The notes beneath the pieces were generated by a model. That model did no database searches and was not told the origin of the DNA. It saw only the letters and a program-made list of their open reading frames with translations. This document shows, piece by piece, positions 8,509-25,771 of a stretch of 34,204 nt of DNA; within the stretch, counting starts at the first letter, position 1; each line of letters starts with the position of its first letter. The translations under genes were made by a program, and so were the position numbers. Origin of the DNA: Sulfurimonas sp. (lineage in GTDB: Bacteria > Campylobacterota > Campylobacteria > Campylobacterales > Sulfurimonadaceae); NCBI GenBank assembly GCA_027082875.1, contig JALWTK010000200.1, positions 1-34,204 of the forward strand, written 5' to 3'.

Positions 8509-9240
8509 ATGATACGACACTCTAGCTCTTTTTTCATTTCACTTCTATTACATGCACTTATTGTGGCTCTTTTATTTATGGCTTATAGAGAGTATAAAAC
8601 AACTGTAGCAGAGAAAAGTGATGAACGTATGGTCTGTGTGCAACTCTCCTGCATGAGTGAAAAAAGCACTCCTCCTTCAGTAGAAAAACAAGTAAAAAAG
8701 ATTCCACCAAAAAAAATCAAACAGAAAATAAAAAAGATCATAGTAAAGAAAGATAAGGTGATAATTAAGAAGAAAACTGTTCAGCCTAAAACTCTTTCTA
8801 AACCGATACCTATGCCTGTCGTGATACCTGAGGTTGAAGAGGAAGCCTCAGTAGAAAAAGTAGTTACTCCTGCTCCTCAAAAAGAAGCACTACAAAAAAA
8901 TGGAAGGGCAGAACAAAAGAAGCCTGTCAAAACAGAGATAGAAAAAGTAAAGTCACCAGAAGAAGAGTATGTAGAAGAGCACTTAGCAGAGATAGTAGCA
9001 CTCTTGCAAGAAAACCTTTACTACCCTAGACGAGCTAGAAAACGAGGAGTGCAGGGTGAAGTAGTTATCCGTTTCACACTTTCAAAAAATGCAGAAGTCT
9101 CAGGCATAGAAGTGCTCTCTTCAAAGAGTGATATCTTAAGTCGAGGGGCGATAAAAACAATAGAAAACATAGAATACAAACTTCCAAAACCAAAACAGAG
9201 ACTCACTTTTAATGTCCCTATCTCCTACTCACTTAACTAA
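8509..9240 (+). CDS. tonB: TonB-family energy transducer
   Basis: Residues 8-25 form one membrane helix with the SLLLHALIVALLF pattern typical of TonB, including the Ser and His of the SxxxH motif. Residues 50-145 are rich in Lys, Pro and Glu, the periplasm-spanning rod. Residues about 150-243 match the TonB C-terminal domain, with YPRRARKRGVQGEVVIRF followed by a KNAEVSGIEVLSSKS segment. TonB carries proton-motive energy from ExbB/ExbD to outer-membrane receptors for iron complexes and other ligands. No exbB or exbD lies in the window, so the partners must be elsewhere. No consensus ribosome binding site stands out before the ATG. The 3' end overlaps the convergent WYL gene by four bases. 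Confidence 0.88.
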   Translation: MIRHSSSFFISLLLHALIVALLFMAYREYKTTVAEKSDERMVCVQLSCMSEKSTPPSVEKQVKKIPPKKIKQKIKKIIVKKDKVIIKKKTVQPKTLSKPIPMPVVIPEVEEEASVEKVVTPAPQKEALQKNGRAEQKKPVKTEIEKVKSPEEEYVEEHLAEIVALLQENLYYPRRARKRGVQGEVVIRFTLSKNAEVSGIEVLSSKSDILSRGAIKTIENIEYKLPKPKQRLTFNVPISYSLN

Positions 9241-10166
9241 AGAGATAAGTTCTTTAAATCTTTGAGATAGTTTTCAAGTTCTGATATGAGTCTCTTCCTA
9301 AAACGCGAAGGACTAATGACCTCTATGTGTGGTAGCCAAGCCTTTATAAGGTTATCTACATCTTCATCCGTACTCACAGTAAAGCTGACAAGTAGACTAC
9401 CATCCTTATTTTCTTTGAGAATCTCTTGAGAAGTGAGATGCTTTTTGAGTTTGAAGTAGTGGGCTATCTCTTCTTTTACTCTGACCTTTACTTCAAAACT
9501 ATTTCCATCTTCAAACCAAGCCGTATGAACATTTTCTAGTACAGCATCTATATCTGCATAGGTTTTACTAAAGACATGAGTACTAGCACGAAACTCTGTA
9601 ATATTTGCGATGAGATAAGTTTTTATTTTCTTATCTTCCGTGTCTCGAGCAAGTAGATACCAGATGCCATCAAATGCTGTCACCTTGTATGGTAGAACTG
9701 TAGAGGTGATCTCGTTACTAGTTACCTTAGAAGTGTTGCGTTTAGAGATGGCATCTTCTATTTTATTTAAGAGTTCCGAGTCCATATTTATCTCTTGAAA
9801 TCCCTCTTTTTTGATGTTATAGGGATTGAAGAAAAGAGGATTCACGAGTTTTGCACGAATAGCATGTAGTTTTTTATCAGTTTTCTCATCTATGCCATGA
9901 ATGGAGTTGAGTGCAAGTTCTGCTACGAGAAGTTCCTCTTGTTCTAATGCAAGGGCAGTGATATCATAATGTTCATCAAGATAGACAATGTTTTTACGAA
10001 GTTCTATGGGAAAGAAATGCATACGCTCCACATCTCTTCTGATGGTTCGATCACTTACATTGTGTTCCTCTGCAAGCTCATCGATAGGGATAGACTTTCT
10101 CTCTTGTAAAGCTTGCATCATGAGTAGTACTCGTGCAAACATTTTATCGTGATCTGATACTGCCAC
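9237..10166 (-). CDS. WYL-domain transcriptional regulator
   Basis: The 309-residue protein begins with a winged helix-turn-helix of the DeoR/HTH_11 kind (residues 1-60, with SIPIDELAEEHNVSDRTIRRDVERM). The WYL domain follows, with the DGIWYLLARD signature near residue 165-175, and then a WCX-like C-terminal region (about 225-309). WYL regulators bind nucleotide-type or nucleic-acid ligands and often control phage-defence genes (BrxR and CapW are examples). The start is GTG at 10166, six bases after a strong GAGGAG. It is the last gene of the phosphatase-ATPase-WYL operon, 46 bp after the ATPase gene. It is the likely binder of the 15-bp dyads found in this cluster, which would make it autoregulatory. 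Confidence 0.88.
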   Translation of the reverse strand: MAVSDHDKMFARVLLMMQALQERKSIPIDELAEEHNVSDRTIRRDVERMHFFPIELRKNIVYLDEHYDITALALEQEELLVAELALNSIHGIDEKTDKKLHAIRAKLVNPLFFNPYNIKKEGFQEINMDSELLNKIEDAISKRNTSKVTSNEITSTVLPYKVTAFDGIWYLLARDTEDKKIKTYLIANITEFRASTHVFSKTYADIDAVLENVHTAWFEDGNSFEVKVRVKEEIAHYFKLKKHLTSQEILKENKDGSLLVSFTVSTDEDVDNLIKAWLPHIEVISPSRFRKRLISELENYLKDLKNLSL

Positions 10167-10212
10167 TTCTTTCTCCTCATGATTAAGTACTCAAAGAATA
10201 GCAAAATAAACT

Positions 10213-11820
10213 TTAAGATGCCCAATACTCCTCTAAAGAATCTAGATGATGCTCTTCATCAGATTCTTGGTTATTCAAAGATTTCTTGATGGAGAGTAGG
10301 TACGAGCTCACTTCACTATTGAGATAGTCAATGTTACTTTTACTGAGTGACTCTCTGATATACTCTTTTTTAGTTTTGATATCTAAAACTATTAGCTTAT
10401 TATCTCTAAAAAGTCTTGCATCATACTCGAGTATCACTGCTGCACTTTTGTACTTATAGAGAAAATTTTCTAAGACATTAAGTCTTTTTTGGTAGAGATA
10501 CTCCACTTTTATTTTATGTTCACTCTCTAAAAAAAGTGGCTTAGCAATATGTATCTCTTCAAAGTTGTCCTCTGAACTTAGAAACTCAAAACCTTCTAAG
10601 TAAGAGAGTTCATTTTGAGACTCTAACTCTTCATCAGTTGAACTTTTATAGTAAAACTTCTTTGTTAGATTTCCCATAAGAGCATCAAACTTCTCCTCTT
10701 TGAGTTTCTCTTTGAGAAGTGCAGAGTTTTGAGTGGCTAAAAACATATCTACTTTCGCCTCACGTAGAACATCTATGGGGATGTCACTCTTCTCACTTAC
10801 TACACGTTGCACTTCATCTATAAAGATAGAGATAGGGTTGATATGAATACTTTTTGTGCGTTTACTCAGCTCATAGAGTATAGTATTGCTCAGAGACTCA
10901 ACTACTGAGTTTGAGAGTGACTCTACATTTATGATGATAATCTTGCCTTGGTTAAGAGCTTTAATGATATCAAGTGAGTTTGTATTAAAAGAGCTGTTCT
11001 GTGAAAGACTCAGTAGTGGAGCAGTCAGAGAACCCATGATGTTTTGAGTTAGGTTTTCGTTAGAGTCCCCACCAAAACTCTCTAAAGAACTACTATTTGC
11101 ATCTATGATGATCTTGTACTTCTCTTTGAGTGTGATGAGCTGAAAAAGTTTCTCTTTGAGCTCTTTTGTCGCTCCTGACTCAGCATAAGCAGACTTCACC
11201 GACTCTTTTATGAGTTTGTCAAACTCTTTTTCTAAAAACGAAAGATATGATACAAACTCTTTGAGTGTATCAAATGTCTTACACACTTCTACTAAAGAGT
11301 TGAGGTTTCTGATAGTCGGGTACTTAACATTTCCAACTTCAAAGTACTCGCGTTTTACACCGTCAAGTTTGTAAAGTTCTTTTGCGAATGCTTCTATGCC
11401 TTTGAGGACTTGAAGTACTGTTTGGCCTAATGACTTTGCACTATTTTGCCAGTACTGAGAATCTTTACCATGGTTGAGTATAACATCAAAGAACTTGTCC
11501 AGAGCATCTTCATCCATGTTCTCTATAAGGTTGATAGACTCACCCCAAGGCTTCCCTATCTCTATAACATCATCAAGGCGCGAAGTCTCTAGTGCAAAGC
11601 TTTTTACACTCAAATGCTCTTTACCCTTGTAGTCATAAAGCAGTATACCATGTCCAAGTTCAAGGCGTTTTTTGAGGTTGGAGTAGATATAACTAGAAGT
11701 CTTTCCTGCTCCTGTCTCCCCAAATGCGATAGAGTGTGTAAACGTCTCAGGAACGAGTATAGAAGTTTCTATCTTTGTTGTAGTTGTCTCTTCTTGTTTT
11801 ATAAATCCCATAGTTGCCAT
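10213..11820 (-). CDS. HerA/FtsK-superfamily ATPase related to VirD4/TraD coupling proteins
   Basis: The 535-residue protein has Walker A GETGAGKTS (34-42), then a DYKGKEH segment typical of the family. Walker B ISIFIDEVQRV lies near residue 335, followed by DVLREAKVDMFLATQN, which matches the sensor region (LATQ) of VirD4/TraG-type ATPases. There is no membrane anchor at the N terminus, so unlike true conjugation coupling proteins it is cytosolic. No relaxase or type IV secretion gene is near. A helical insertion of about 150 residues (roughly 110-260) separates the two Walker motifs. Such hexameric ATPases move DNA or protein. The ATG at 11820 follows AAGGAG by six bases. The role in this cluster is inferred to be a motor. 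Confidence 0.75.
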   Translation of the reverse strand: MATMGFIKQEETTTTKIETSILVPETFTHSIAFGETGAGKTSSYIYSNLKKRLELGHGILLYDYKGKEHLSVKSFALETSRLDDVIEIGKPWGESINLIENMDEDALDKFFDVILNHGKDSQYWQNSAKSLGQTVLQVLKGIEAFAKELYKLDGVKREYFEVGNVKYPTIRNLNSLVEVCKTFDTLKEFVSYLSFLEKEFDKLIKESVKSAYAESGATKELKEKLFQLITLKEKYKIIIDANSSSLESFGGDSNENLTQNIMGSLTAPLLSLSQNSSFNTNSLDIIKALNQGKIIIINVESLSNSVVESLSNTILYELSKRTKSIHINPISIFIDEVQRVVSEKSDIPIDVLREAKVDMFLATQNSALLKEKLKEEKFDALMGNLTKKFYYKSSTDEELESQNELSYLEGFEFLSSEDNFEEIHIAKPLFLESEHKIKVEYLYQKRLNVLENFLYKYKSAAVILEYDARLFRDNKLIVLDIKTKKEYIRESLSKSNIDYLNSEVSSYLLSIKKSLNNQESDEEHHLDSLEEYWAS

Positions 11821-11862
11821 CTTGTGCTCCTTGATGTTTGATAAGAGAAGTATAAGCAGAAG

Positions 11863-11883
11863 TTGTGACAGCTTGTGTCACAA
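11863..11883. promoter_or_regulatory. 15-bp dyad operator upstream of the ATPase gene
   Basis: The core TGACAGCTTGTGTCA (11866-11880) has flanks that extend the dyad to arms TTGTGACA and TGTCACAA. It differs by one base over 18 from the site at 12683-12700 read on the other strand. It covers the stop codon of the phosphatase gene, 43 bp upstream of the ATPase start. It is likely bound by the WYL regulator of the same operon. Confidence 0.65.
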
Positions 11884-12597
11884 AGAAGAATCTTTTTGAG
11901 AAGCCACACTCATTAGTTCATAGTTGTTCATAGGATCACTTGTATCACTTACTATACAAGCGGTGAGTCTATTTCCATAAACACAGCCTGTATCTATCCC
12001 TAAAGAGTGAGTATCTACCTTTACTTCTTTAAAAGCTTCATGTCCATAGATGATGATACCTTGCTTACCATCATAAAGCTCACTCCAAAAAGTAGAACTC
12101 TCATCTTCCGAGCCTAAAGCAAGAGGAGTCTTCTCATCCTTGAGGTATCTTATCCAGAGTAACTTCTCTAAGTCCTTCTTCTTGGCACTCTCTAAGTCGA
12201 TGTTGTTTAGTATCCCTGCATGAAGTAGTGTAAGATTATCTATCTTTATGAAAAATGGCAGACTCTCTAAAAACTCTAAGTCACCTTCATCAAAGCCATT
12301 AAAAAGGCTAAGTCTCCTTTCATCGAAGTTCATAGGGTTGTTTTTTTCTGTTTTGAGATATATATCATTATGCCTTTTATAGCGAAGGTATCTGTACTCG
12401 TGGTTTCCGAGTACCGACTCTATGCCATTTTCTCTTACATATCGAAAGAGCTCATTTGAGTGTGGACCGCGATCTACTATATCGCCTATGACTATCTCCC
12501 TGTCATCAGGAGATGGTTGTATTTTCTCTCTAAGTGCTATAAACTCATCAAGACATCCGTGGAGGTCTCCGTAGATTATTATTTTATTTTTTTGCAT
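11878..12597 (-). CDS. PPP-family metallophosphatase (ApaH/PrpA-like)
   Basis: The 239-residue protein shows every metal-binding motif of the PPP family: GDLHGC (10-15), GDIVDRG (38-44), GNHE (64-67), LLHAG near residue 130 and YGHE near 185. Members are Ser/Thr/Tyr protein phosphatases (PrpA, PrpB) or hydrolyse dinucleoside polyphosphates (ApaH); the sequence does not decide between them. The protein is cytoplasmic, with no signal peptide. It is the first gene of the minus-strand operon, with AAGGAG six bases before the ATG. Being next to a VWA protein recalls the TerY-P triads, where a phosphatase is paired with a VWA protein. A regulatory dephosphorylation or nucleotide-signal role is inferred. 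Confidence 0.88.
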   Translation of the reverse strand: MQKNKIIIYGDLHGCLDEFIALREKIQPSPDDREIVIGDIVDRGPHSNELFRYVRENGIESVLGNHEYRYLRYKRHNDIYLKTEKNNPMNFDERRLSLFNGFDEGDLEFLESLPFFIKIDNLTLLHAGILNNIDLESAKKKDLEKLLWIRYLKDEKTPLALGSEDESSTFWSELYDGKQGIIIYGHEAFKEVKVDTHSLGIDTGCVYGNRLTACIVSDTSDPMNNYELMSVASQKDSSL

Positions 12598-12641
12598 TTA
12601 CTACTCCTTTTATAAAAGTGTGAATTTTTTATTAGAAAAGA

Positions 12642-12649
12642 ATAGTATC
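12642..12649 (-). promoter_or_regulatory. probable -10 of the phosphatase operon
   Basis: The minus strand reads GATACTAT here, with overlapping -10-like hexamers GATACT and TACTAT, each four of six to consensus. Transcription would begin near 12635, and the operator at 12659-12673 would then cover the -35 region. Confidence 0.4.
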
Positions 12650-12658
12650 AAAATAAAA

Positions 12659-12673
12659 TGACAGCTCATGACA
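12659..12673. promoter_or_regulatory. dyad operator, left copy, in the divergent promoter region
   Basis: TGACAGCTCATGACA matches the site near 11866 (TGACAGCTTGTGTCA) at 12 of 15 bases. It overlaps the expected -35 region of the minus-strand promoter. Together with the copy 24 bp away it forms a larger inverted repeat with outer arms TGACAGC and GCTGTCA. Confidence 0.6.
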
Positions 12674-12682
12674 AAAAATAAA

Positions 12683-12697
12683 TGACACATGCTGTCA
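12683..12697. promoter_or_regulatory. dyad operator, right copy, in the divergent promoter region
   Basis: On the minus strand this reads TGACAGCATGTGTCA, one base different from the core near 11866. It overlaps the expected -35 region of the plus-strand promoter for the MoxR-like gene. Two sites, one per divergent promoter, fit joint repression by one regulator. Confidence 0.65.
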
Positions 12698-12708
12698 CAA
12701 ACTTCTTT

Positions 12709-12714
12709 TATACT
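12709..12714 (+). promoter_or_regulatory. probable -10 of the MoxR-VWA operon
   Basis: TATACT is five of six to consensus and lies 22 bases before the ATG at 12737. The strong ribosome binding site AAGAGGAG lies in between. Confidence 0.45.
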
Positions 12715-12736
12715 TTTAAAATAAGAGGAGTATGAT

Positions 12737-14092
12737 ATGACACGAGTAGAAATAGCAAAGCTTATAAAAGAGTCATCAGCTGGAGTGAAAAAGTTTATGT
12801 TTGTGAGTAGTGGGTATGTGGATTCTCCATTTATCTCTAAGTTTGCGACACTAAACAAGCATGAGTACAATGCTGCTTACTATAGTGTTTACTCCCTCGC
12901 TGCAAATCCGGCTATACATTATGTGACAGTGCTTAGTCTTTATAAAGATACTTATACTTTGAAGTGTGGTGATGCATATTTAGAGGGTGCTATTAGCGAA
13001 GAAACTCTTAAAAATCTTATAAATGTGACATTAGAAAAAGCACAAAGTACAAACAAGAGTCTACCATCTCTGCTTCAAGCAAACTACAACATTGCTCCTA
13101 GAAGTAGTACTTGTACATTTAACCAAAAAAACTATGAGCAAGTGGATTTTTTGTGTGAGCATATAAGTAACTTCTTGGCAAATCTCCCAAAAGATGTACT
13201 GAGTAAACTCTACACAAACTACCATAAAACACTCTATGGTATCAACGATGGAAAGGTATCCCCAGAGCTTCAGATGAAGTTCAAACGCTATGCTTTTAAA
13301 AAACATATACTTTTAGAGGGAGATAAGGGGAGTGGGAAGACCTATACTGCTACTTCTTGGGTGAAGGAAAATAATTTTACTCAGATATTTATAGGTGGGC
13401 ATGAGCAGTTTGAGTCTATAGACTTTTTGGGGCATTACATCCAGCAGAAATCTGGTGAGCTTGTCTGGAAAGATGGGGCTCTGAGTGAGGCTTATAGAAA
13501 AGCAGCCTTAGGAAAAAAAGTCGTAGTTATCATAGATGAGATACTTCGTATACCAAAACGTGAGCTCAACCTGCTTATCTCTGCACTCTCGCCTATAGAT
13601 GGTTCCTATACTTTAAGAACGGGACGGGCTGAGTCTTCACAAAACGGTATAGCCAAAGAGGAAGTCCTTCTCGCCCCAGCACAAAACCTTTGGGTTATAG
13701 GGACTACTAATGTCGGTGCAGCTTATGCAGTGGAGAGTATGGATGAGGCACTTAGTGATAGGTTTAAGCCCATACGAAAAGATACTACAGAAGAGGAGCT
13801 AAGAAAGATACTTCTCTCCACTGTCCAAAAGCGAAACTTCTCTAATGAACATGTTGAAAAACTGATGCAGTTTTACATAAAGATGAAGCGACTCTACACA
13901 ACAAATATACTCACGAAGATAGTAAATATCCGCCAACTTTGTGAGGCTATAGAGATAGCAACACATCAAAACGAGATAAAAGAGATCATAAAAGACTCGT
14001 TACTTCTATGGGTAGAGAGAGACTTCGATGGCAGACCAAACAGTGAACAGGTTTTAGCTGTACAGAGTGTGATAGGAAAAATCTATGTCTAA
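12737..14092 (+). CDS. MoxR-like AAA+ ATPase with an unrecognised N-terminal domain
   Basis: Residues 190-451 form an AAA+ module: Walker A GDKGSGKT (195-202), Walker B VVVIIDE (261-267), sensor GTTN (321-324), and the arginine finger Arg341 in ALSDRF. This resembles MoxR ATPases that act with VWA proteins. Residues 1-185 are not typical of MoxR, which usually starts the AAA+ part within 40 residues. I do not recognise this domain; it is mixed alpha/beta with no membrane segment. The gene overlaps the VWA gene by eight bases, so the two products are likely made together. MoxR-VWA pairs act as chaperone-like remodellers or metal-insertion machines. The substrate here is not known. Confidence 0.85.
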   Translation: MTRVEIAKLIKESSAGVKKFMFVSSGYVDSPFISKFATLNKHEYNAAYYSVYSLAANPAIHYVTVLSLYKDTYTLKCGDAYLEGAISEETLKNLINVTLEKAQSTNKSLPSLLQANYNIAPRSSTCTFNQKNYEQVDFLCEHISNFLANLPKDVLSKLYTNYHKTLYGINDGKVSPELQMKFKRYAFKKHILLEGDKGSGKTYTATSWVKENNFTQIFIGGHEQFESIDFLGHYIQQKSGELVWKDGALSEAYRKAALGKKVVVIIDEILRIPKRELNLLISALSPIDGSYTLRTGRAESSQNGIAKEEVLLAPAQNLWVIGTTNVGAAYAVESMDEALSDRFKPIRKDTTEEELRKILLSTVQKRNFSNEHVEKLMQFYIKMKRLYTTNILTKIVNIRQLCEAIEIATHQNEIKEIIKDSLLLWVERDFDGRPNSEQVLAVQSVIGKIYV

Positions 14093-15554
14093 AGAGGAGA
14101 TGATAAAAGTACTCAAAGCATACTATATACAGTTACAGATAGATGAGGTACTTCCTCCTGAAGTGTATGAAATCTATGTAAAACCTGACTTTAACACTGC
14201 ATCCTGGCATTTTCATAGAGGGGTGCATAAGATAGTTGTAGGGGAAGATATATTTGTCTCTTTTGACTCACAAGCGAGTAAAGCCTTGAGACAAAAGTGT
14301 CTCTACTCGTACTTTAACCATGAGTTAGGACACAGTATCTGGACATACAAGGATCTCAAAGCGATTAACAAAATGTTAGAGCACGATAAAATTCCCTTTA
14401 TGCTTTTTAATCTTTTTGAGGATGCTCGTATAGAGGAGAAGATGAGAATGCACATAAAAAAGCCTTTTCGATGGAAAGAGTTTGAGTCACTCGCTACCCC
14501 TACAAATGCTCTTGAACTCTTCTTTTTTATACTTCAGAGTGAGCACTCAAAATCTGAGATACTGCGTGTCAAATCAGATCCACTCTTTTCGCAAGTCTTT
14601 GGCTTTTACAAGAGAGTTGTTTTAGCTGATGATAGCTTTGATGTGATAGAGATACTCAAGGAATGGTTAGAAGTTTTTCCTCTCACAAAGGAGTATGTTG
14701 AGGAGATGCGCTACATTGATCATCTTTTTGTAAGTGAGGCAGAGTACTGTGATGAAGAGGCTTTTGAGCAACTCTTAGAAGGTGCTGTGGCTGTAGATAT
14801 GGGTGGATACGAGGGAGAAAAAAAAGCGGATATAAAGCAGAAATCACATCTAAAGAGCAAAAAAACTACTCAATCTGTGCTCCTCTCAGAGATATACACA
14901 GAACCTACTTTTGACACAAAAAAGAGAGATAAGTTACTTGTTACGATGAAAAAGCTCTTTGTAGAGAGTAGGGGAAATGAGGCTACACATCTACCCTCTA
15001 AAAGGTTAAATATCAAGCGAATAGCCTCAGGGTCACAGAAGCTTTATAAACGCCGATCAAGAGAGAAGATAGTTACAAAAAAGGTAAATATTATTCTTGA
15101 TCTTTCAGGTTCTATGCACTCTAGTATAGAAGATATGCAGTTAATAGTTGATGTACTCAATAGGATGAGTAGACTAGGGATAATAGATGCACAGCTTATC
15201 CTTACTGGAGTCAAACATGGCTATGCAGTACATCAATGCTTAGAGATGCCTTTTAAAGAGGAGACACTTGGATATCTCGATGCAGTTTATTATGGAGAAG
15301 GAATGGATCTCTGTTTGAGAAAGAACCTAAGCTCTTTGCAATCAGCAGACTATAACTTACTACTTACGGATGGTTATATAGATGAAGAGCCTCTTGATAA
15401 AAAGTTCTTCGCTTCAAAGCAAGTAAAAACTCATGCACTCTACATAGGTAATGAAGAGACTAGAGAAGAGATGCTAGAGTCATTTGACTATGTTTTATGT
15501 GAAAAAAATGTTGATGAGCTTACTCAAAAAATATTTACACTCTTTTTACACTGA
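14085..15554 (+). CDS. zincin HExxH plus VWA domain protein
   Basis: The N-terminal region carries HELGH (79-83), a zinc metalloprotease motif, in YFNHELGHSIW. About 30 residues on is FEDARIE (111-117), whose Glu could be the third zinc ligand. FEDARIE-type motifs also occur in NorD/CobT-like VWA proteins. A charged linker spans about 255-330. The VWA domain begins at NIILDLSGSM with the MIDAS residues Asp339, Ser341 and Ser343, and LLLTDGYID near Asp429. The 489-residue protein has no signal peptide or membrane segment. It is the expected partner of the MoxR-like ATPase, whose gene it overlaps. A metal-activated or MoxR-controlled peptidase is inferred; the peptidase activity is not shown. 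Confidence 0.82.
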   Translation: MSKEEMIKVLKAYYIQLQIDEVLPPEVYEIYVKPDFNTASWHFHRGVHKIVVGEDIFVSFDSQASKALRQKCLYSYFNHELGHSIWTYKDLKAINKMLEHDKIPFMLFNLFEDARIEEKMRMHIKKPFRWKEFESLATPTNALELFFFILQSEHSKSEILRVKSDPLFSQVFGFYKRVVLADDSFDVIEILKEWLEVFPLTKEYVEEMRYIDHLFVSEAEYCDEEAFEQLLEGAVAVDMGGYEGEKKADIKQKSHLKSKKTTQSVLLSEIYTEPTFDTKKRDKLLVTMKKLFVESRGNEATHLPSKRLNIKRIASGSQKLYKRRSREKIVTKKVNIILDLSGSMHSSIEDMQLIVDVLNRMSRLGIIDAQLILTGVKHGYAVHQCLEMPFKEETLGYLDAVYYGEGMDLCLRKNLSSLQSADYNLLLTDGYIDEEPLDKKFFASKQVKTHALYIGNEETREEMLESFDYVLCEKNVDELTQKIFTLFLH

Positions 15555-18299: not shown

Positions 18300-19036
18300 T
18301 GCAAAAAGAGAATATTTTTAACATAGCAAACAACATAACATTTGTGAGAATTTTTGTCTCATTTATTGCGTTTGGACTTGTCCTTAGTGGAGATATAAAA
18401 CTTCTTCTAGTGGCTATCATCCTCATCGCTTACTCAGAACTCACTGATATGCTCGATGGTTATTTGGCTCGTCGTGATAACTGTGTTACAAGTTTAGGAA
18501 AGTTACTTGACCCTCTGAGTGATAGTATTTCGCGTTTTATGTACTTCTTCGCGTTTGGATATATGGGACTTTTTCCTTTATGGCTTGTGGTTGTACTTTT
18601 TGTACGAGATATCATAGTCGCTTACATCCGTACCTATATGTCACTTATGGGTATCGCTATGGGTGCTCGTTTTAGTGGAAAAGCGAAAGCTCTTGTACAG
18701 TTTGGTGGTCAGTATCTCCTCCTTTATGCTCTTTTGGTACTCTATCTTAATCAAGGACAGAGCTATAGTGAAGAGTATCTTCAGATGATGACGGCTATAG
18801 GAACTGTCTCAACATTCGCAATTTTACATTTTCTCAAAGTCAAGGGTGCTTACTACTGGTACTCACTTTTAGGTTATGTAGCATTTTTAATCCCTTTTTA
18901 TATGATAAATAAGTTTGATATTACTCTTGATACCTCATACTCTACAGGTGTGATGGTCTTTGTTGGTGCGGTAACTTTATGGTCTTTAGTAGATTATCTC
19001 TCAGCACTTTTTGAAGCAATGAAAGGAGAAAAGTAA
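18299..19036 (+). CDS. CDP-alcohol phosphatidyltransferase (PgsA-like)
   Basis: The catalytic motif D-G-x2-A-R-x8-G-x3-D-x3-D is complete: Asp53, Gly54, Ala57, Arg58, Gly67, Asp71 and Asp75. About seven hydrophobic segments follow and precede it, so this is an inner-membrane enzyme that uses CDP-diacylglycerol. Glycerol 3-phosphate (giving phosphatidylglycerophosphate) or inositol phosphate are possible acceptors. At 245 residues it is longer than a typical PgsA (about 180), with extra membrane segments at the C-terminal end. It overlaps the HAD gene and the next gene by one base each. I cannot tell whether it is the only PgsA of the cell, so no symbol is given. Confidence 0.85.
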   Translation: MQKENIFNIANNITFVRIFVSFIAFGLVLSGDIKLLLVAIILIAYSELTDMLDGYLARRDNCVTSLGKLLDPLSDSISRFMYFFAFGYMGLFPLWLVVVLFVRDIIVAYIRTYMSLMGIAMGARFSGKAKALVQFGGQYLLLYALLVLYLNQGQSYSEEYLQMMTAIGTVSTFAILHFLKVKGAYYWYSLLGYVAFLIPFYMINKFDITLDTSYSTGVMVFVGAVTLWSLVDYLSALFEAMKGEK

Positions 19037-19782
19037 TGGATACTCAAGTACTAGATATCATCAAAAAAATAGATATTTTTTATAAAGAACTTTACGAGAA
19101 AACAAATGACTCTGTACAGGTAAGCCTAAAAGATAATGGAACTTCTGTAAGTCAGTTTGACCTTGATGCTACAGCCTATTGTATAGAAGTCATCAACGAG
19201 ACTTTCCCTAATGCAAACATCTGGATAGAGGAAGATCAGGCTATCCTCAAGAGTGATGAAAATGAATACACTTTTGTCATAGATCCTCTTGATGGGACAG
19301 CCTCTTTTCTACGTGGCTATCCTATCTGGGGCATTGGGATTGGAGTTTTAAAAAATGGCACTCCACTTCTTTCATACTTTTATGGACCAGCTTGTAATCA
19401 AAAATATTTAGCTTATGATGAGAAGATCTTTATCAACGATAGAGAGCTCCATAGTGAAAACAATGTAGTAAATGCGGACACAAAGACTATCTTTATAAGC
19501 TCGCGGTTACACAAGAAGATAGACTTCAAAGAGTTTGAAGCACTTAAACTCCGTAACTTTGGCTCTACACTTTATCATGTTGTGATGGTGGCGTTAGGTA
19601 AGGCAGAAGCTACACTCATAGGCTCTTGTTACATCTGGGATGTGGCAGCTGTCTTTTTTCTCGCAGAGAAGTTTGACTATGCTTTTTATGAGTTTAGTTC
19701 ACAGAAGAAACTCACATTCGATGATCTTATGGTTTATAAGAGTGAAAAAATAGATGTCGTTTTAGAGTTTAAAAAGGCTTAG
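19036..19782 (+). CDS. inositol monophosphatase family enzyme
   Basis: The metal-binding motifs of the lithium-sensitive phosphatases are present: WIEED with Glu65-Glu66-Asp67, VIDPLDGTASF (81-91) and IWDVAA near residue 206. The 248-residue length is usual. Family members hydrolyse inositol phosphates, 3'-phosphoadenosine 5'-phosphate (CysQ) or sugar phosphates. Close packing with a phosphatidyltransferase, starting one base inside it, suggests a phospholipid headgroup or its precursor as substrate, but this is inference. The enzyme is cytoplasmic. Its 3' end carries the AAAAGG that probably serves the next gene. Confidence 0.85.
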   Translation: MDTQVLDIIKKIDIFYKELYEKTNDSVQVSLKDNGTSVSQFDLDATAYCIEVINETFPNANIWIEEDQAILKSDENEYTFVIDPLDGTASFLRGYPIWGIGIGVLKNGTPLLSYFYGPACNQKYLAYDEKIFINDRELHSENNVVNADTKTIFISSRLHKKIDFKEFEALKLRNFGSTLYHVVMVALGKAEATLIGSCYIWDVAAVFFLAEKFDYAFYEFSSQKKLTFDDLMVYKSEKIDVVLEFKKA

Positions 19783-19783
19783 T

Positions 19784-20632
19784 ATAAAGAAAGTTTTTAT
19801 CGGCTTAGTTCTGCTTTTCTTAGGAGTTCTAGCCATACGAGAATACAATAGTGAGGATATCTTATCTATGGATATAAAAAGTAAAAAATTTGTCTACCAC
19901 CGTGCTTTAAATACAGAGGAAGCTTTTAAAAAGTTTATCGCTCTCAATGCCGAGTCTGAGTATACTCTTGCAGCAGAGGGTGATGTCTGCTGGGCTTATA
20001 TAAATGGTGCTTATGTTATCTATATACACCACCCTGATGTACAAGGAAAGTCTCTTAGTAATGAGACAATCTCTGAGCTTTTAGCTAAAGATGAACTCCT
20101 GACTCTGGAGAAACTCTTTAGTATAAACGCCTCTGTAAACTTCATCCTGGAACTCAAAACTGGAAATGGTGATATAGAGGGTTTTTTTAGAGAGTTTAAA
20201 AAGATACTTGAAAAGTTTGATGTACACAATGCGGTAGTAGATGCCTTTAGTGTAGAGCAACTTCGTGGACTCAAAGCTGTGATGCCAGAGATAAAAACGA
20301 GTCTACATACAAAGTTTGTTCTAGGAAAATATGTTCTTGAGACTACCTTTGAGAAGCCCTATCTAAGAGTGCATAATCTCTATAACTTAGACTTTATAGA
20401 CTTTGTCACCATCTCCTACACAACTACACATGTGAATCTTTTTAACCTAGATATAGACAGTTCATACAAGGATATCTTCTCATCAAATAAACACTTAAGC
20501 CTAGGTTCAGTAAAATCACTAGAATCGTTTAAAAAAGTTATGGCTTCAAAGGCGGAATATATCTATCTTAGAAGTGATGATGTAAAACAAAACTATACAA
20601 AGGTACTCGAAAATTATGAAAAAACTCAATAA
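19784..20632 (+). CDS. membrane-anchored GDPD/PLC-like phosphodiesterase, divergent
   Basis: The frame is open from 19766 and reads KKVFIGLVLLFLGVLAIREYN before the first ATG at 19868. I therefore start it at the ATA of 19784, which would encode the initiator before that helix and has AAAAGG six bases upstream. The domain keeps the GDPD layout: YHRA, AAEGDVCW and YIHHPD, at His11, Glu37, Asp39 and His54/55 counted from the ATG at 19868. This is almost the spacing of the real GDPD at 16970. LELK near residue 95 could be the last ligand. It resembles GDPD and FAM151-type proteins. A periplasmic or membrane-facing lipid diesterase is plausible; activity is unproven. Confidence 0.6.
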   Translation: MKKVFIGLVLLFLGVLAIREYNSEDILSMDIKSKKFVYHRALNTEEAFKKFIALNAESEYTLAAEGDVCWAYINGAYVIYIHHPDVQGKSLSNETISELLAKDELLTLEKLFSINASVNFILELKTGNGDIEGFFREFKKILEKFDVHNAVVDAFSVEQLRGLKAVMPEIKTSLHTKFVLGKYVLETTFEKPYLRVHNLYNLDFIDFVTISYTTTHVNLFNLDIDSSYKDIFSSNKHLSLGSVKSLESFKKVMASKAEYIYLRSDDVKQNYTKVLENYEKTQ

Positions 20633-21434
20633 AATACTCTTCTCTCTTCTTGGATTTCTCTCGATACTCTCCGCTTCACCAGTACATAAGGATATCAAAT
20701 GGGTAAAATTATTTGATGTGAAGTCACTAAATGAAAGCTATGTTCCTCAAGCTATAGATGTCTACAAAGATTATGTACTTTTTAGTGTGCATGCAAAAGA
20801 TGCTAAGTCTGTGCTTATTGTTTTTAAAAAGTCACCGGGAAAGTTAGAGTATCTCTTTGAGGTAGATATGCCTAATGAGGCTACACATACAAGTGATTTT
20901 AATGTCCTTGGTGATATTCTTTATGCTATAGACTATGCGAGTAATAAAATATATGAGATAGATATTCCAACACTTATTAATGAGCAAAAGCTTGTGATAA
21001 ATGATGGTTTTTACCTTGATATGGCACGTACTGGATCGCTAGCTATAATAGATGTAGATGGAGAGCCTTATGTTTTTATAACTCAATTTATTCTCTCAAA
21101 TAAGCTTAAAGGTTTTAAACTCAGTGAGGTGAAAAATGGTGGTACACTAGATACTGATAAAATAGAGATTGAGATAAGTAATCACCGTTTTGTTCAAGGG
21201 CTCTTTGTGAAGTACAATATGCTCCTTATCTCTACAAACAACTGGGGAATTGATACTATTACTATAGTTGACATTCCTAAAATGCTTAAGACAAAAAGTG
21301 TAGAAGATGCAACACTTACAACAATGAATGCACCTTTTAAAATGGTAGAAGATCTTACAATATATGGTAATACTATTCTAACTTCGGATGAAGAGAGTAA
21401 CTACATCTATGAGTCAGAGGACTTAACAAAGTAA
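20616..21434 (+). CDS. exported protein, probable beta-propeller
   Basis: This 272-residue protein begins with a clear signal peptide (about residues 1-21, ending ILSASP). The rest is a series of beta-rich blocks with short aromatic and Asp-containing turns, such as DYVLFSVHAKD, GDILYAIDYASN, GEPYVFITQF and NMLLISTNNWG. That pattern suggests a WD- or YVTN-like propeller, but I do not recognise a family. No lipobox Cys is visible. It overlaps the GDPD-like gene by 17 bases and the NACHT gene by one base (TAATG), so these three are translated together. A binding or sensing role in the periplasm is a guess. Confidence 0.6.
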   Translation: MKKLNKILFSLLGFLSILSASPVHKDIKWVKLFDVKSLNESYVPQAIDVYKDYVLFSVHAKDAKSVLIVFKKSPGKLEYLFEVDMPNEATHTSDFNVLGDILYAIDYASNKIYEIDIPTLINEQKLVINDGFYLDMARTGSLAIIDVDGEPYVFITQFILSNKLKGFKLSEVKNGGTLDTDKIEIEISNHRFVQGLFVKYNMLLISTNNWGIDTITIVDIPKMLKTKSVEDATLTTMNAPFKMVEDLTIYGNTILTSDEESNYIYESEDLTK

Positions 21435-24400
21435 TGTATGTTGATGGTTTTTTAGAAGAGTATAGTGATGAGCAGACAGAGTTCTATGAAGAACTACTTG
21501 ATGAGGTTGAAGAGAGCTTTCCTACTGCTATAAGTCACCGTGTCGCAAGATACTTTGCACTTATGGATGATGAAGATTATCTTCGTGCCTCACTTATCAT
21601 AAGAGACTTTTTTGAGATCACTATGAGTTATGTCTCAACTGTGCTTATTCATGAGATAGACATCAACCTCATAGGCTCACATGATAAGTTTAAGTCTGTG
21701 CTTGATAAACTTATCTCTAAACCCCTTTCAACTGGTGACTGGGTAAATGATATTTTTATCGTTTTACTTAAAGTCGCGAAAGAACTTAATGTAGATACTC
21801 CTCTAGTAAACTCTATACATACTAAAATGATCGCTAAAAAAGGAAACCTTCTTCAGGGTTGGTCAAACAAAACTCCAGATGGTTATAAGTATGAAGGCTT
21901 TGCTAAGATAAGAAATGATTACTTTGGTCATGAGACTACTCTTGATGATGAGGAGTTACAAAAACTTCTTGCAGTTTTAGAGCCTCGAATGTTAGATTTT
22001 TTAGATGCTATTATGCCTATTGGTGAGTATACTGCGTTTAGTGTGGAGAAGGAGTCACCAAAAAAAGAGGGTGAAACACTTAATACTTATACTGTAAACC
22101 TTCTTAGAAATGATAACTCAAAGTGTAAAATATTCTCAGATATGGAGCTTCAAAAGGAGCATTTTTACTCTATTCACGGAGAGATAAAGAAAAAGGCTAC
22201 ACTCCAAGCAAAAGATATAGTGAGTTTTACTCCTATGATAGTCTATATGCCTGTGGATCGTGAGAACATAGATAAGAACTGGTGTACCTTTCTTTTCCAA
22301 ACTCTTCACTCTTCAGACCTTGGGAAGATGGTCTATATCTCCCCTTGTGAAAACGCGAAGAAGCAGCAGGTCTCTCACTTTAAAGATGATATGCTCTCTT
22401 ATCTACGTTTTGCATTAGATATGGATGAAAATAGTACGGAGACTTTTAATATAGAGGGCTATAAGGTAAAACGAACACAAGAAAAAAGCTGGAATGCTTA
22501 TGTGGACTATGCAGATATAGAGACAAAAACATTTTTGGGTCAGATGAAAAAAGAGAAGTATGATCCTAAACTTTTTATCGCGAGAAAAGAGTTACTTCAT
22601 GGTTTTGAGCAGTTTTTAGAAGATGAGCAAAACAGAGCCTTTGTTCTGCTTGGAAATGCCGGAAGTGGGAAAACAAATATAGTCTGCCACTTTACTGAAC
22701 TCTTAGCGAGAAAAGAGAAGAGTAAAGAGGAGCAAGAAGAAGCTGAGAGAAGTGGTCTTGTAGAAGAGCCTTCTGACTTAGTGCTGACTTTTTACTCTAA
22801 GGTCTTTACCGATTTTTCATTAGAGAGTAGACTCAAAGAGCTCTTTGATGAATCAAAAACTGATATAAATAAGCTACTGCAAAATATAAATAAGCAGGCA
22901 CAAAAAGAGAGTAAAAAAGTACTTTTTGTATTTGATGCTATCAATGAGTGTCTGAATTACAATGTCAAAAAGGGTGAAACTCTAGAGTATGATGGACCTG
23001 TAAAACTCATTCAAGATATAGATAAAATCTTAGTGCAAGAGAAGTTGACAAATATCAAAGTTATCATCACCTGTAGAACTTATACGTGGAGTGAGGCTAT
23101 CGAGTCTCAAGAGCATAGCCTTAAGCGAGGTTTGTACTTCACTACAAAAGATATGCAAGAGGATGTAGAGGAAGATACTGAAATTATTCTCTCAAAGTTT
23201 ACTTATGAAGAGTTCACTGAGGTCTATCCAAAATACCAAGAAAAGTATGAGCTTCTAACTACTGCAGAAGAGATAGAAGAGGCACGATATAGAATGACAA
23301 AAGAGCGACTTCTTGACCCACTCATTCTCAAAACTGCTTCAAAAGATTACAGAGGGACTACACTTCCTACTGACATTGTAGCACTTGACTCTATCTCTCT
23401 TTTTGAGGCACAGATAAAACAGGTGCTTGAGAGTGAAGCTGGAAAAGAGCAACTTCGTATACTTAATGAGTTTACAAAGTATCTCAAAAAGATAAAAGGG
23501 GATGCCCTAAAAATCCATAAACTTATGGATGCTTATGAAGATGAGATAGATCCTCTTCATAAACTCGCCAAACGCCTCTTAAAAAATGAAAATGGAGATA
23601 ACTCGCATCAACTCTCCCTACTCATAGATGGAGGAATCCTCAGAATAGAACACTCAACTCGCTATGAAGAGCTACGTTTTGTATATGAGCGCTTTCATGA
23701 GTATATGCTTGCACGACTCTTTGTTGATGAAGAGAGTGAAAAACTCAAAAAAGAGAGACTGCCTATTCCAGCTCAGGTGTACATAAAAGACCTTGAAGAG
23801 GCTCGTGAGTATGTTGTAATGTGGGGAGCACTTCGTAATGCACTTATCATTGACTATAGAAGAACAGAAGAGTTATTAAATAGTGATAGAGGTGACCCTA
23901 CTACTATCATAGAGCTTGCCGGAAATGAAGTTTTTGGTATTCAAGCACTTGTTGTGGATGCGCTTAAAGTTCTTGTACACGAAAACTATAACGATGTGTA
24001 CGAGCTTATAGAGGAGTTACTTATTATCCGTAACCCTCGTATAAAGTCTGATATAAAAGCTATGGAAAAGCTAGAAAAAGCGATGGAAGAGGAGGGTGAC
24101 TCACAAAGGGCTGATGAGCTCAACCAAGAGTATAAACTTCTCGTACAAAAAATAGCTCCGGAGATAAACAAGTGCAAGGTGGCCGTTGGAACTATCTATC
24201 TTGTCTTTAAGTCTGAGATATACTCGAAAACTCTCTATTCAGAGGATAAAAACCCTTTTAACTTACTCTGGAAATCTATGAAAAATGAGATAGCAGCAGT
24301 TCGTGACTATGTCTCACTCTACATCTACTATATAACAAAGTATGATCAGAGTATAGGGCAGAAAATTCTAAATACTTTGAATGAGTCTATTTTGGAGACA

Positions 24401-25771
24401 AACCTTATAAAACTTGTCTGGAAAGAGAAAAATGAACCTCTACTTGAACCTGCTGCAAGGCTCTCTCTTTTACTCCTTGTTGAAGCATGGTTGGAGGGTG
24501 GAAAAGATGATGCTTTTGTGCAAGAGATCTATGCTACATGGGATAAAATCCTTAAAAAGCTTACGTTTGGTCACCTGCTCACTAGAATAGCACAACCCTT
24601 TATAAAAGTAGTCCTTAAACGCCAAGGAAAAGTACAAACAGAGTATGTAAATAACGCCATAGAGTACCAACACTTCTGGGATGGAGATAGCAATGGAAAA
24701 CTCTTTATAAATGAGAAGAGTCAAGAGGGTGGATGGAATAAAGAGGATTATGGAAAACTCGTTGCTTATTTAGACAAAGATACAGAGGGCTTTTCAGACT
24801 TTCATGATGTTGTTTATGATGGAATGATGAGTGCAGATAGTTTTAGTTTTTTCCTTCTTGAGCGCGTGCTTATCTCTCAGGGTGTAAAAGATTGGCGAGG
24901 GCTTGAAGGGCTTATAGAGAATATATACACCTCTACTGATAACGAGTATATTGACTATATTCAGATGTCTATACTCTACACACTCTTTCATACTATGGAG
25001 AAATCAGAAACCATAGAAGATGAGGCCTTTGCCAACTATGAACGCTATATGCTCTCGTGGACTCGCCGTTGTAAGGGTTACTTTCATGCTCACTATGACT
25101 CCAAAGCAAATAATGGGAACAAGTACAAACAGTACACACTTAACTGGTATGGTGCACTCTACTGTAAAAAGTATGGAGATGGAAAAATCGCTCCTAGTGA
25201 TGAGGTGAGTGTTCCTATCTTTAGAGAGCTTATCGAGGAGGCTTTTTATGATGCAGATAAGGAACTTCTTTTCTACTGTATAGAAAATATTGCTGTTTTA
25301 GTCTCTGACTTTGGCTACTACAAAACAGCCCTAGAACTCTTTGAGTTTGTGCTTGGACTTTTTAAAACAGAGTCAGATATAGAGAAGTTTTCTCTGGAGA
25401 CTCCAGTAGAAGTAGAACACTACAATGTAGAGCTAAGACCTTTTATCTCTGCTATAATTGTGACAATAAAAAATTATTACCCAAAAGAGGTAGAACAGTT
25501 TATAAACAATGAACTTGCACAAACAAATTTCCCAGAGTTTGAAAAGTTTCGCCAAGAGCTTATAAGAGCAAATGAGGTGCATGAAAATTTTGGAGATCTT
25601 ATCACACATAAGGTAGGAAACTTTTTTGTCAGAGGGATTGTTTTTGATCCTAGTATTCGTGGATTTTTTCAAGATATTTTTTATGAGTCGAACAGGTCTG
25701 AGAACTATATAGAGTGGATAGATAAGGTAGTCGTATATATACTACGCTCCATCTTTAATGTAAAAATATAA
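21434..25771 (+). CDS. large STAND-type NTPase with HEPN-like N terminus and NACHT domain
   Basis: The 1445-residue protein is cytosolic and multi-domain. Residues 1-200 are mostly helical and contain RNDYFGH (160-166), an R-x5-H motif like that of HEPN ribonuclease domains. A region of unknown type spans 200-370. The NACHT NTPase follows, with Walker A GNAGSGKT (407-414), Walker B LFVFDAINE (497-505) and sensor ITCR (545-548). A winged-helix-like part ends in FVYERFHEYMLARLF near residue 750. The rest (750-1445) looks like helical repeats, the usual sensor side of such proteins. Bacterial NLR-like and Avs immune proteins share this plan. The gene starts one base inside the propeller gene and ends 13 bp before the MscS gene. 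Confidence 0.78.
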   Translation: MYVDGFLEEYSDEQTEFYEELLDEVEESFPTAISHRVARYFALMDDEDYLRASLIIRDFFEITMSYVSTVLIHEIDINLIGSHDKFKSVLDKLISKPLSTGDWVNDIFIVLLKVAKELNVDTPLVNSIHTKMIAKKGNLLQGWSNKTPDGYKYEGFAKIRNDYFGHETTLDDEELQKLLAVLEPRMLDFLDAIMPIGEYTAFSVEKESPKKEGETLNTYTVNLLRNDNSKCKIFSDMELQKEHFYSIHGEIKKKATLQAKDIVSFTPMIVYMPVDRENIDKNWCTFLFQTLHSSDLGKMVYISPCENAKKQQVSHFKDDMLSYLRFALDMDENSTETFNIEGYKVKRTQEKSWNAYVDYADIETKTFLGQMKKEKYDPKLFIARKELLHGFEQFLEDEQNRAFVLLGNAGSGKTNIVCHFTELLARKEKSKEEQEEAERSGLVEEPSDLVLTFYSKVFTDFSLESRLKELFDESKTDINKLLQNINKQAQKESKKVLFVFDAINECLNYNVKKGETLEYDGPVKLIQDIDKILVQEKLTNIKVIITCRTYTWSEAIESQEHSLKRGLYFTTKDMQEDVEEDTEIILSKFTYEEFTEVYPKYQEKYELLTTAEEIEEARYRMTKERLLDPLILKTASKDYRGTTLPTDIVALDSISLFEAQIKQVLESEAGKEQLRILNEFTKYLKKIKGDALKIHKLMDAYEDEIDPLHKLAKRLLKNENGDNSHQLSLLIDGGILRIEHSTRYEELRFVYERFHEYMLARLFVDEESEKLKKERLPIPAQVYIKDLEEAREYVVMWGALRNALIIDYRRTEELLNSDRGDPTTIIELAGNEVFGIQALVVDALKVLVHENYNDVYELIEELLIIRNPRIKSDIKAMEKLEKAMEEEGDSQRADELNQEYKLLVQKIAPEINKCKVAVGTIYLVFKSEIYSKTLYSEDKNPFNLLWKSMKNEIAAVRDYVSLYIYYITKYDQSIGQKILNTLNESILETNLIKLVWKEKNEPLLEPAARLSLLLLVEAWLEGGKDDAFVQEIYATWDKILKKLTFGHLLTRIAQPFIKVVLKRQGKVQTEYVNNAIEYQHFWDGDSNGKLFINEKSQEGGWNKEDYGKLVAYLDKDTEGFSDFHDVVYDGMMSADSFSFFLLERVLISQGVKDWRGLEGLIENIYTSTDNEYIDYIQMSILYTLFHTMEKSETIEDEAFANYERYMLSWTRRCKGYFHAHYDSKANNGNKYKQYTLNWYGALYCKKYGDGKIAPSDEVSVPIFRELIEEAFYDADKELLFYCIENIAVLVSDFGYYKTALELFEFVLGLFKTESDIEKFSLETPVEVEHYNVELRPFISAIIVTIKNYYPKEVEQFINNELAQTNFPEFEKFRQELIRANEVHENFGDLITHKVGNFFVRGIVFDPSIRGFFQDIFYESNRSENYIEWIDKVVVYILRSIFNVKI

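What the first reader, a model, noticed from the sequence alone, without database searches (positions are those of the whole stretch)
9237..15554. Candidate undescribed system: WYL regulator, VirD4-like ATPase, PPP phosphatase, MoxR ATPase and zincin-VWA protein
Five genes sit back to back around one divergent promoter and share probable operators, while the genes on either side are ordinary (tonB, gdhA). The parts are known: MoxR-VWA pairs, TerY-P-like phosphatase-VWA pairing, and WYL regulators common in defence loci. The combination with a soluble coupling-type ATPase and an HExxH-VWA protein is not one I know. A conflict or stress module, in which the MoxR ATPase controls a VWA peptidase and the phosphatase resets the switch, is inferred.
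Basis: partly seen in the sequence, partly recalled or inferred. Interest (0 to 1): 0.78.

Follow-up and report, generated by a model that had tools for sequence, protein, structure and literature searches.

The report
WYL-promoter regulon around AAA-peptidase genes
A bacterium related to Sulfurimonas carries five neighbouring genes that belong to a larger, patchily inherited set of molecular-machine and effector genes sharing one newly recognised promoter motif, probably a stress or anti-virus response.

Summary
The five genes are real and correctly placed, and the shared operator is real. A dyad, TGACA-N5-TGTCA, lies exactly 11 bp upstream of a TATACT -10 at the P2-P1 and P4-P5 promoters; a weaker copy precedes P3. 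In related genomes the same promoter precedes homologues of P2, P4-P5, a YbjN + double-AAA/M41 protease pair, and an inositol-monophosphatase-family gene (31 perfect dyads in 385 kb of cluster loci, 0 in 175 kb of other loci of the genus). The geometry matches WYL activators (dyad over -35 as in DriD, half-site at -26 as in PafBC), and P1's nearest solved structures are DriD.

The literal five-gene set is not conserved: it is complete only here among 135 genomes of the genus. Its parts co-occur non-randomly: all five genomes with an intact close P4-P5 also carry P2 and the AAA-M41 protease, which here sits on another contig. Neighbours in relatives include TIR-LRR, caspase-WD40 and DUF4062-NACHT-TPR genes.

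The MoxR + zincin-VWA pair was already described in jumbo phages, and MoxR-vWA conflict systems are known. The new part is the regulon and the combination. Function (conflict or DNA-damage response) is inferred, not shown.

The parts
9237..10166 (-). P1: WYL-domain transcription regulator (HTH_11-WYL-WCX), DriD-like; last gene of the P2-P1 unit
   Evidence: Pfam WCX 3e-12, HTH_11 6e-8, WYL 3e-6; profile of orthologues hits DriD structures 7tzv and 8tp8
10213..11820 (-). P2: soluble VirD4/TraG/HerA-class ATPase without membrane segment
   Evidence: TraG-D_C 4e-5; Walker A GETGAGKT and Walker B IFIDE, no hydrophobic segment; profile hits HerA 4d2i at 4e-8
11866..11880 (.). WYL-type operator of the P2-P1 unit; with N11 and TATACT read on the - strand
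   Evidence: TGACACAAGCTGTCA-N11-TATACT, exact match
11878..12597 (-). P3: PPP-family phosphatase (ApaH/PrpE-like)
   Evidence: Metallophos 5e-16; ApaH 7e-24 but below cut-off; catalytic motifs intact
12659..12673 (.). weaker operator copy for P3 on the - strand: TGTCATGAGCTGTCA-N11-TACTAT
12683..12714 (+). promoter of P4-P5: TGACACATGCTGTCA-N11-TATACT
12737..14092 (+). P4: MoxR-clade AAA+ ATPase (midasin/NorQ/CobS-like)
   Evidence: AAA_5 1.5e-12; CobS-type phrog_249 3e-11; profile hits midasin and NorQ
14085..15554 (+). P5: zincin (HELGH, NLFEDARIE) fused to VWA (DLSGSM MIDAS), CobT-like
   Evidence: zincin and MIDAS residues invariant or nearly so in 22 homologues; AlphaFold pLDDT 82.6, VWA matches midasin MIDAS and NorD, Z 15-16

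Best explanation
The five genes are one locus of a modular, horizontally shuffled stress/conflict regulon. P1 is a DriD-type WYL activator that probably senses single-stranded DNA (phage replication or DNA damage). It binds TGACA-N5-TGTCA dyads that straddle the -35 position and switches on P2-P1 (a positive loop), P3, P4-P5 and unlinked genes such as the IMPase-family gene. P4 (MoxR AAA+) and P5 (zincin-VWA) then act as a chaperone-peptidase pair: the VWA MIDAS captures a protein, the AAA ring remodels it and the zincin may cut it. P2 is a second, DNA- or protein-pumping ring ATPase. The AAA-AAA-M41 protease with its YbjN partner, encoded on another contig of this genome and next to P4-P5 or P2 in relatives, completes the proteolytic arm. 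Shown: gene content, motifs, promoter motif, co-occurrence. Inferred: that P1 reads the motif, the ssDNA signal, activation rather than repression, substrate cutting, and the anti-invader role.
For: Promoter: the exact dyad was found 31 times in 385 kb of cluster loci; the other 59 permutations of the half-site gave at most 4. Spacing 11 to a TATACT-like -10 gave 29 hits, other spacings 0-6; none in 341 kb of other Campylobacterota P2 loci and no dyad in 175 kb of other loci of the genus. It precedes P2, P4, YbjN-AAA-M41 and IMPase in several genomes. In the whole own genome the only perfect TGACAN5TGTCACAA sites are the two here and the IMPase promoter. Geometry: half-site at -28..-24, dyad centre -31, as in DriD (PMC12340889) and PafBC's -26 motif (PMC11804915). 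P1 profile hits DriD structures. Co-occurrence in 135 genomes: intact P4-P5 with P2 5/5 (p 1e-6), P1 orthologues with P2 6/7 (p 4e-7), AAA-M41 protease with P4-P5 (p 2e-8) and with P2 (p 6e-8). Neighbours in relatives: TIR-LRR, caspase-WD40, DUF4062-NACHT-TPR. A P2-WYL pair lies between two transposase genes with the same N-terminal sequence in G298 (L130).
Against: No experiment. The complete set of five occurs once. G386, G401, G408 and G304 carry the promoter or dyad without a close P1 orthologue, so another regulator may read it. The YbjN-AAA-M41 locus in this very genome lacks the motif. No PADLOC system covers P2-P5. P2 could not be modelled (pLDDT 42). Fisher tests treat species as independent although they are related. 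Catalysis by P5 is inferred from motifs only.
Confidence: 0.5

Rival explanations
1. Several independent accessory modules (P2-P1, P4-P5, YbjN-AAA-M41, P3, IMPase) were gathered into one DNA-damage or stress regulon but do not act in one machine; only their promoters are shared.
For: Members split and recombine between genomes: P4-P5 next to YbjN-AAA-M41 without a nearby P2 in G401, P2-WYL alone in G298, P1 with caspase-WD40 and no P2 in G282. P4-P5 lives without P1-P3 in viral contigs, Variovorax and Agitococcus. P2 occurs alone or with ClpP in other Campylobacterota.
Against: The intact P4-P5, P2 and AAA-M41 sets coincide almost perfectly in 135 genomes although they lie at different places; regulon sharing alone would not require that.
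Confidence: 0.3
2. P4-P5 is a protein-assembly or cofactor-insertion chaperone of the NorQ-NorD / CobS-CobT kind, captured from a phage, with no role in conflict.
For: VWA domain matches NorD and midasin; phage relatives are called CobT-like; the MoxR + metallopeptidase-vWA pair of jumbo phages is proposed to act in virion assembly (PMC7824862).
Against: No chelatase, oxidase or virion gene was seen beside it; the shared promoter ties it to P2, WYL and effector-like genes; HExxH is invariant, which a pure chaperone would not need.
Confidence: 0.12
3. The dyad is not P1's site: it is read by another regulator (a more distant WYL paralogue or an unrelated factor), or P1 represses through it.
For: Motif-bearing genomes without a close P1 orthologue (G386, G401, G408, G304); the phage-defence WYL proteins BrxR and CapW are repressors (own knowledge of those families; papers listed were not read here).
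Against: All seven genomes with a >=60% P1 orthologue carry the motif or a variant near cluster genes; a fixed 11-bp spacing to -10 without a -35 box suggests an activator; P1 is nearest to DriD, an activator.
Confidence: 0.3

Closest known systems
MoxR AAA+ / metallopeptidase-vWA pair of group 2.2 jumbo phages (Iyer et al. 2021, PMC7824862)
   Same: Same two-gene architecture: AAA+ gene just upstream of a vWA protein with an N-terminal metallopeptidase
   Different: Chromosomal, under a WYL-type promoter, with P2/WYL/PPP and an M41 protease; about 20-26% identity to the viral copies found here
MoxR-vWA-centric ternary conflict systems (Kaur et al. 2020, PMC7159879)
   Same: MoxR-vWA pair plus, in relatives, TIR, caspase, WD40, TPR and a double-AAA protein
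   Different: None of the four defining third components is in the window locus; the vWA protein carries its own zincin; the double-AAA protein has two intact ATPase sites and an M41 peptidase; VirD4 is not mentioned in that paper, and I saw no VirD4-like/WYL/PPP combination in the passages read
DriD and PafBC WYL activators (PMC12340889, PMC11804915)
   Same: HTH, WYL and WCX domains; closest solved structures are DriD; site at fixed distance from -10 over the -35/-26 region
   Different: Perfect short dyad TGACA-N5-TGTCA; targets are AAA/peptidase and effector-like genes rather than DNA-repair genes
VirD4/TraG coupling ATPases and HerA
   Same: ATPase core motifs, TraG-D_C match, HerA profile match
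   Different: No transmembrane domain and no type IV secretion genes beside it
TerY-P triad (own knowledge)
   Same: Phosphatase near a vWA protein
   Different: PPP not PP2C fold, no kinase, no Ter genes

Membership tests
MoxR-vWA ternary conflict system | adjacent MoxR AAA+ and vWA genes | tested here: met
   P4 AAA_5 and P5 VWA genes overlap by 8 bp
MoxR-vWA ternary conflict system | third component VMAP, iSTAND, FtsH-type or vWA-fused beta-propeller in the locus | tested here: not met
   No FtsH-type gene among the five and no propeller on P5; no VMAP or iSTAND recognised, though P2 could not be modelled. The AAA-AAA-M41 protein elsewhere in the genome has two intact Walker sites, while the published FtsH component has an inactive first AAA
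Phage MoxR + metallopeptidase-vWA pair | AAA+ gene next to vWA gene with N-terminal HExxH domain | tested here: met
   HELGH ligand residues invariant in 22 sequences
DriD-type WYL activator | HTH-WYL-WCX domain order and closest similarity to DriD | tested here: met
DriD-type WYL activator | dyad over -35 at fixed distance from -10 | tested here: met
   compared. That P1 itself binds it is inferred
DriD-type WYL activator | binds ssDNA and activates RNA polymerase | not testable with these tools
   needs biochemistry
VirD4 type IV coupling protein | N-terminal transmembrane domain and neighbouring T4SS genes | tested here: not met
   max 19-residue hydropathy 0.88; no T4SS genes among the window's neighbouring genes scanned
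TerY-P triad | vWA + PP2C phosphatase + kinase | tested here: not met
   phosphatase is PPP/calcineurin fold; no kinase among the five genes
CobS-CobT cobaltochelatase | CobN subunit partner | tested here: inconclusive
   no CobN-like gene noted beside the pair; the rest of the genome was not searched for it
PADLOC-listed defence system | all required genes recognised | tested here: not met
   only generic WYL and weak mad8/ThsB/IetA-type hits

The most novel reading that the evidence does not exclude
A new WYL-activated, distributed conflict system: ssDNA made by a replicating invader activates P1, which through one fixed-geometry promoter fires a set of three ring ATPases (MoxR/zincin-VWA, VirD4-HerA-like P2, soluble AAA-AAA-M41 protease with YbjN) plus exchangeable effectors (TIR-LRR, caspase-WD40, NACHT-TPR, phosphatases) scattered over the chromosome.
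Probability: 0.35. Interest if true: 0.82.

Novelty: new variant of a known kind. Interest (0 to 1): 0.66.

Why it matters
The promoter motif lets one find system members anywhere in a genome, so stress or defence genes that are not clustered become visible; here it led to an unlinked IMPase-family gene. It gives a directly testable WYL regulon in Campylobacterota, where I know of no characterised homodimeric WYL activator. It also links the enigmatic zincin-vWA/MoxR pair, known from phages, to a bacterial regulon with effector-like genes. If the conflict role holds, it extends MoxR-vWA systems to a group that the published survey text does not mention (no occurrence of 'Campylobacter').

Tried and rejected
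A fixed five-gene operon: rejected by presence/absence. An empty tonB-gdhA insertion site: not found, because gdhA neighbours differ in almost every relative; a later search for tonB gave no insertion argument that I use. Phage or plasmid origin of the five-gene set: no P4 or P5 match in annotated phages, no P2 relative confirmed in viral contigs; plasmid hits are P4-P5 in Variovorax, other AAA genes, and distant P2 in Arcobacter. P2 structure: unusable model, not searched. The generic sigma-70 scan gave only chance numbers. N-terminal zincin fold of P5: no separate structural match was obtained, since the VWA domain filled the list. Literature searches for VirD4-like + WYL defence systems and for MoxR/VWA/FtsH/YbjN/WYL together found no published equivalent, which does not exclude one in subscription journals.

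Full report
What is there. The five ORFs are as described. P1 is HTH_11-WYL-WCX. P2 matches TraG-D_C with intact Walker motifs and no membrane segment. P3 is a PPP phosphatase nearest ApaH/PrpE. P4 is an AAA_5 ATPase. P5 has no Pfam match but carries HELGH, NLFEDARIE, DLSGSM and TDG. The key residues of these P5 motifs are invariant or nearly so in 22 homologues. An AlphaFold model of P5 (pLDDT 82.6) places its C-terminal domain with the midasin MIDAS and NorD VWA domains (Z 15-16), the partners of MoxR-type ATPases. P4's own profile hits midasin and NorQ. The flanking genes are tonB and gdhA.

P4-P5 is a known pair. Thirty-eight viral contigs encode the zincin-VWA protein, most with the AAA gene directly upstream. 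The same order occurs on a Variovorax megaplasmid and in Agitococcus. Iyer et al. 2021 described this MoxR + metallopeptidase-vWA pair in jumbo phages (PMC7824862). None of the viral contigs shows a P1, P2 or P3 homologue near the pair.

Distribution. In the window's genus (135 genomes; two relatives are named Sulfurimonas), P5 is in 7, P2 in 14 (11 strong), P3 in 17, and P1 in 50, of which 7 are orthologues at 60% or more. All five together, with a close P1, occur only in the window's genome; G300 comes nearest, with a 44% P1 and divergent P2 copies. In a 298-genome sample of the phylum, P5 is in the window's genome only and P2 in 24.

Association. Five genomes have an intact close P4-P5 and all have P2 (p 1e-6). 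Six of seven P1 orthologues are in P2 genomes (p 4e-7). Physical linkage: P2, a TIR-LRR gene, P5 and P4 in G298; P2, IMPase, P3, ankyrin, P5 and P4 in G300; P5, P4, caspase-WD40, CHASE2, P2 and WYL in G325. These tests ignore relatedness between species, but the flanking genes differ from genome to genome.

A hidden partner. Beside P4-P5 or P2 in relatives lies a YbjN gene followed by a 914-969-aa protein with two AAA domains and an M41 peptidase. Both Walker sites and HEAGH are intact and there is no clear membrane segment. A full-length version is in only six of 135 genomes: the five with P4-P5 plus G351, all with P2. The window's genome carries it at G000:C36, 73% identical to that of G401.

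The promoter. The P2-P1 and P4-P5 promoters read TGACA-N5-TGTCA-N11-TATACT without mismatch; P3 has a weaker version. In 385 kb of cluster loci from this genus the perfect dyad occurs 31 times; other permutations of the half-site give at most 4. The distance of 11 to a TATACT-like box gives 29 hits, other distances 0-6. In 341 kb of other Campylobacterota P2 loci there are none, and there is no dyad in 175 kb of unrelated loci of the genus. Its downstream genes are P2 (G000, G298 twice, G325, G386, G353, G331), P4 (G000, G298, G300, G325, G401), YbjN (G298, G300, G325, G401) and IMPase (G000, G300, G353). In the whole own genome the only perfect extended sites are the two here and one before the IMPase-family gene at C174. 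That IMPase is 83-87% identical to copies next to P2/P3 or WYL in G300 and G353.

How it probably works. Placing TATACT at -12 puts the inner half-site at -28..-24 and the dyad centre at -31. DriD binds either side of the -35 at a constant distance from -10 (PMC12340889), and PafBC uses a -26 motif (PMC11804915). The P1 profile's best solved structures are DriD (the identity of 7TZV and 8TP8 as DriD is stated). I therefore read P1 as a DriD-type activator, possibly sensing ssDNA. This is an inference: several motif-bearing genomes lack a close P1, and the own YbjN-M41 locus lacks the motif. The AAA/zincin-VWA pair, P2 and the M41 protease would be the induced machinery; the exchangeable TIR, caspase and NACHT genes suggest a conflict role, also inferred.

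Against known systems. It resembles the MoxR-vWA ternary conflict systems (PMC7159879) but lacks their defining third components; the double-AAA protein differs by an active-looking first AAA and a peptidase. No PADLOC system fits. It is therefore filed as a new variant of a known kind, with the WYL-type regulon as its novel element.

Noticed in passing
window 19868-25771 (+): Three tightly packed genes ending in a 1445-aa NACHT-domain protein, 4-10 kb downstream of the cluster and without the WYL-type promoter; possibly another conflict gene.
   Followed up: partly
L032 8224-10605, L034 7963-10313, L036 7440-9546, L037-L039, L049: In other Campylobacterota the P2-family ATPase lies directly downstream of a ClpP-type protease gene, suggesting a VirD4-like ATPase working with a protease.
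   Followed up: partly
L044 3214-11882: A WYL gene, a P2 homologue and five different calcineurin-like phosphoesterase genes sit in one 9-kb stretch.
   Followed up: no
L130 3492-9922: P2 and WYL genes in G298 lie between two divergent transposase genes with the same N-terminal sequence, like a composite transposon.
   Followed up: no
L109 9290-12118: In G408 the P5 homologue is broken into pieces with a stop while P4 is intact and still has a dyad upstream.
   Followed up: no
window 19036-19782 (+): A second inositol-monophosphatase-family gene lies in the window outside the cluster, without the promoter motif.
   Followed up: no
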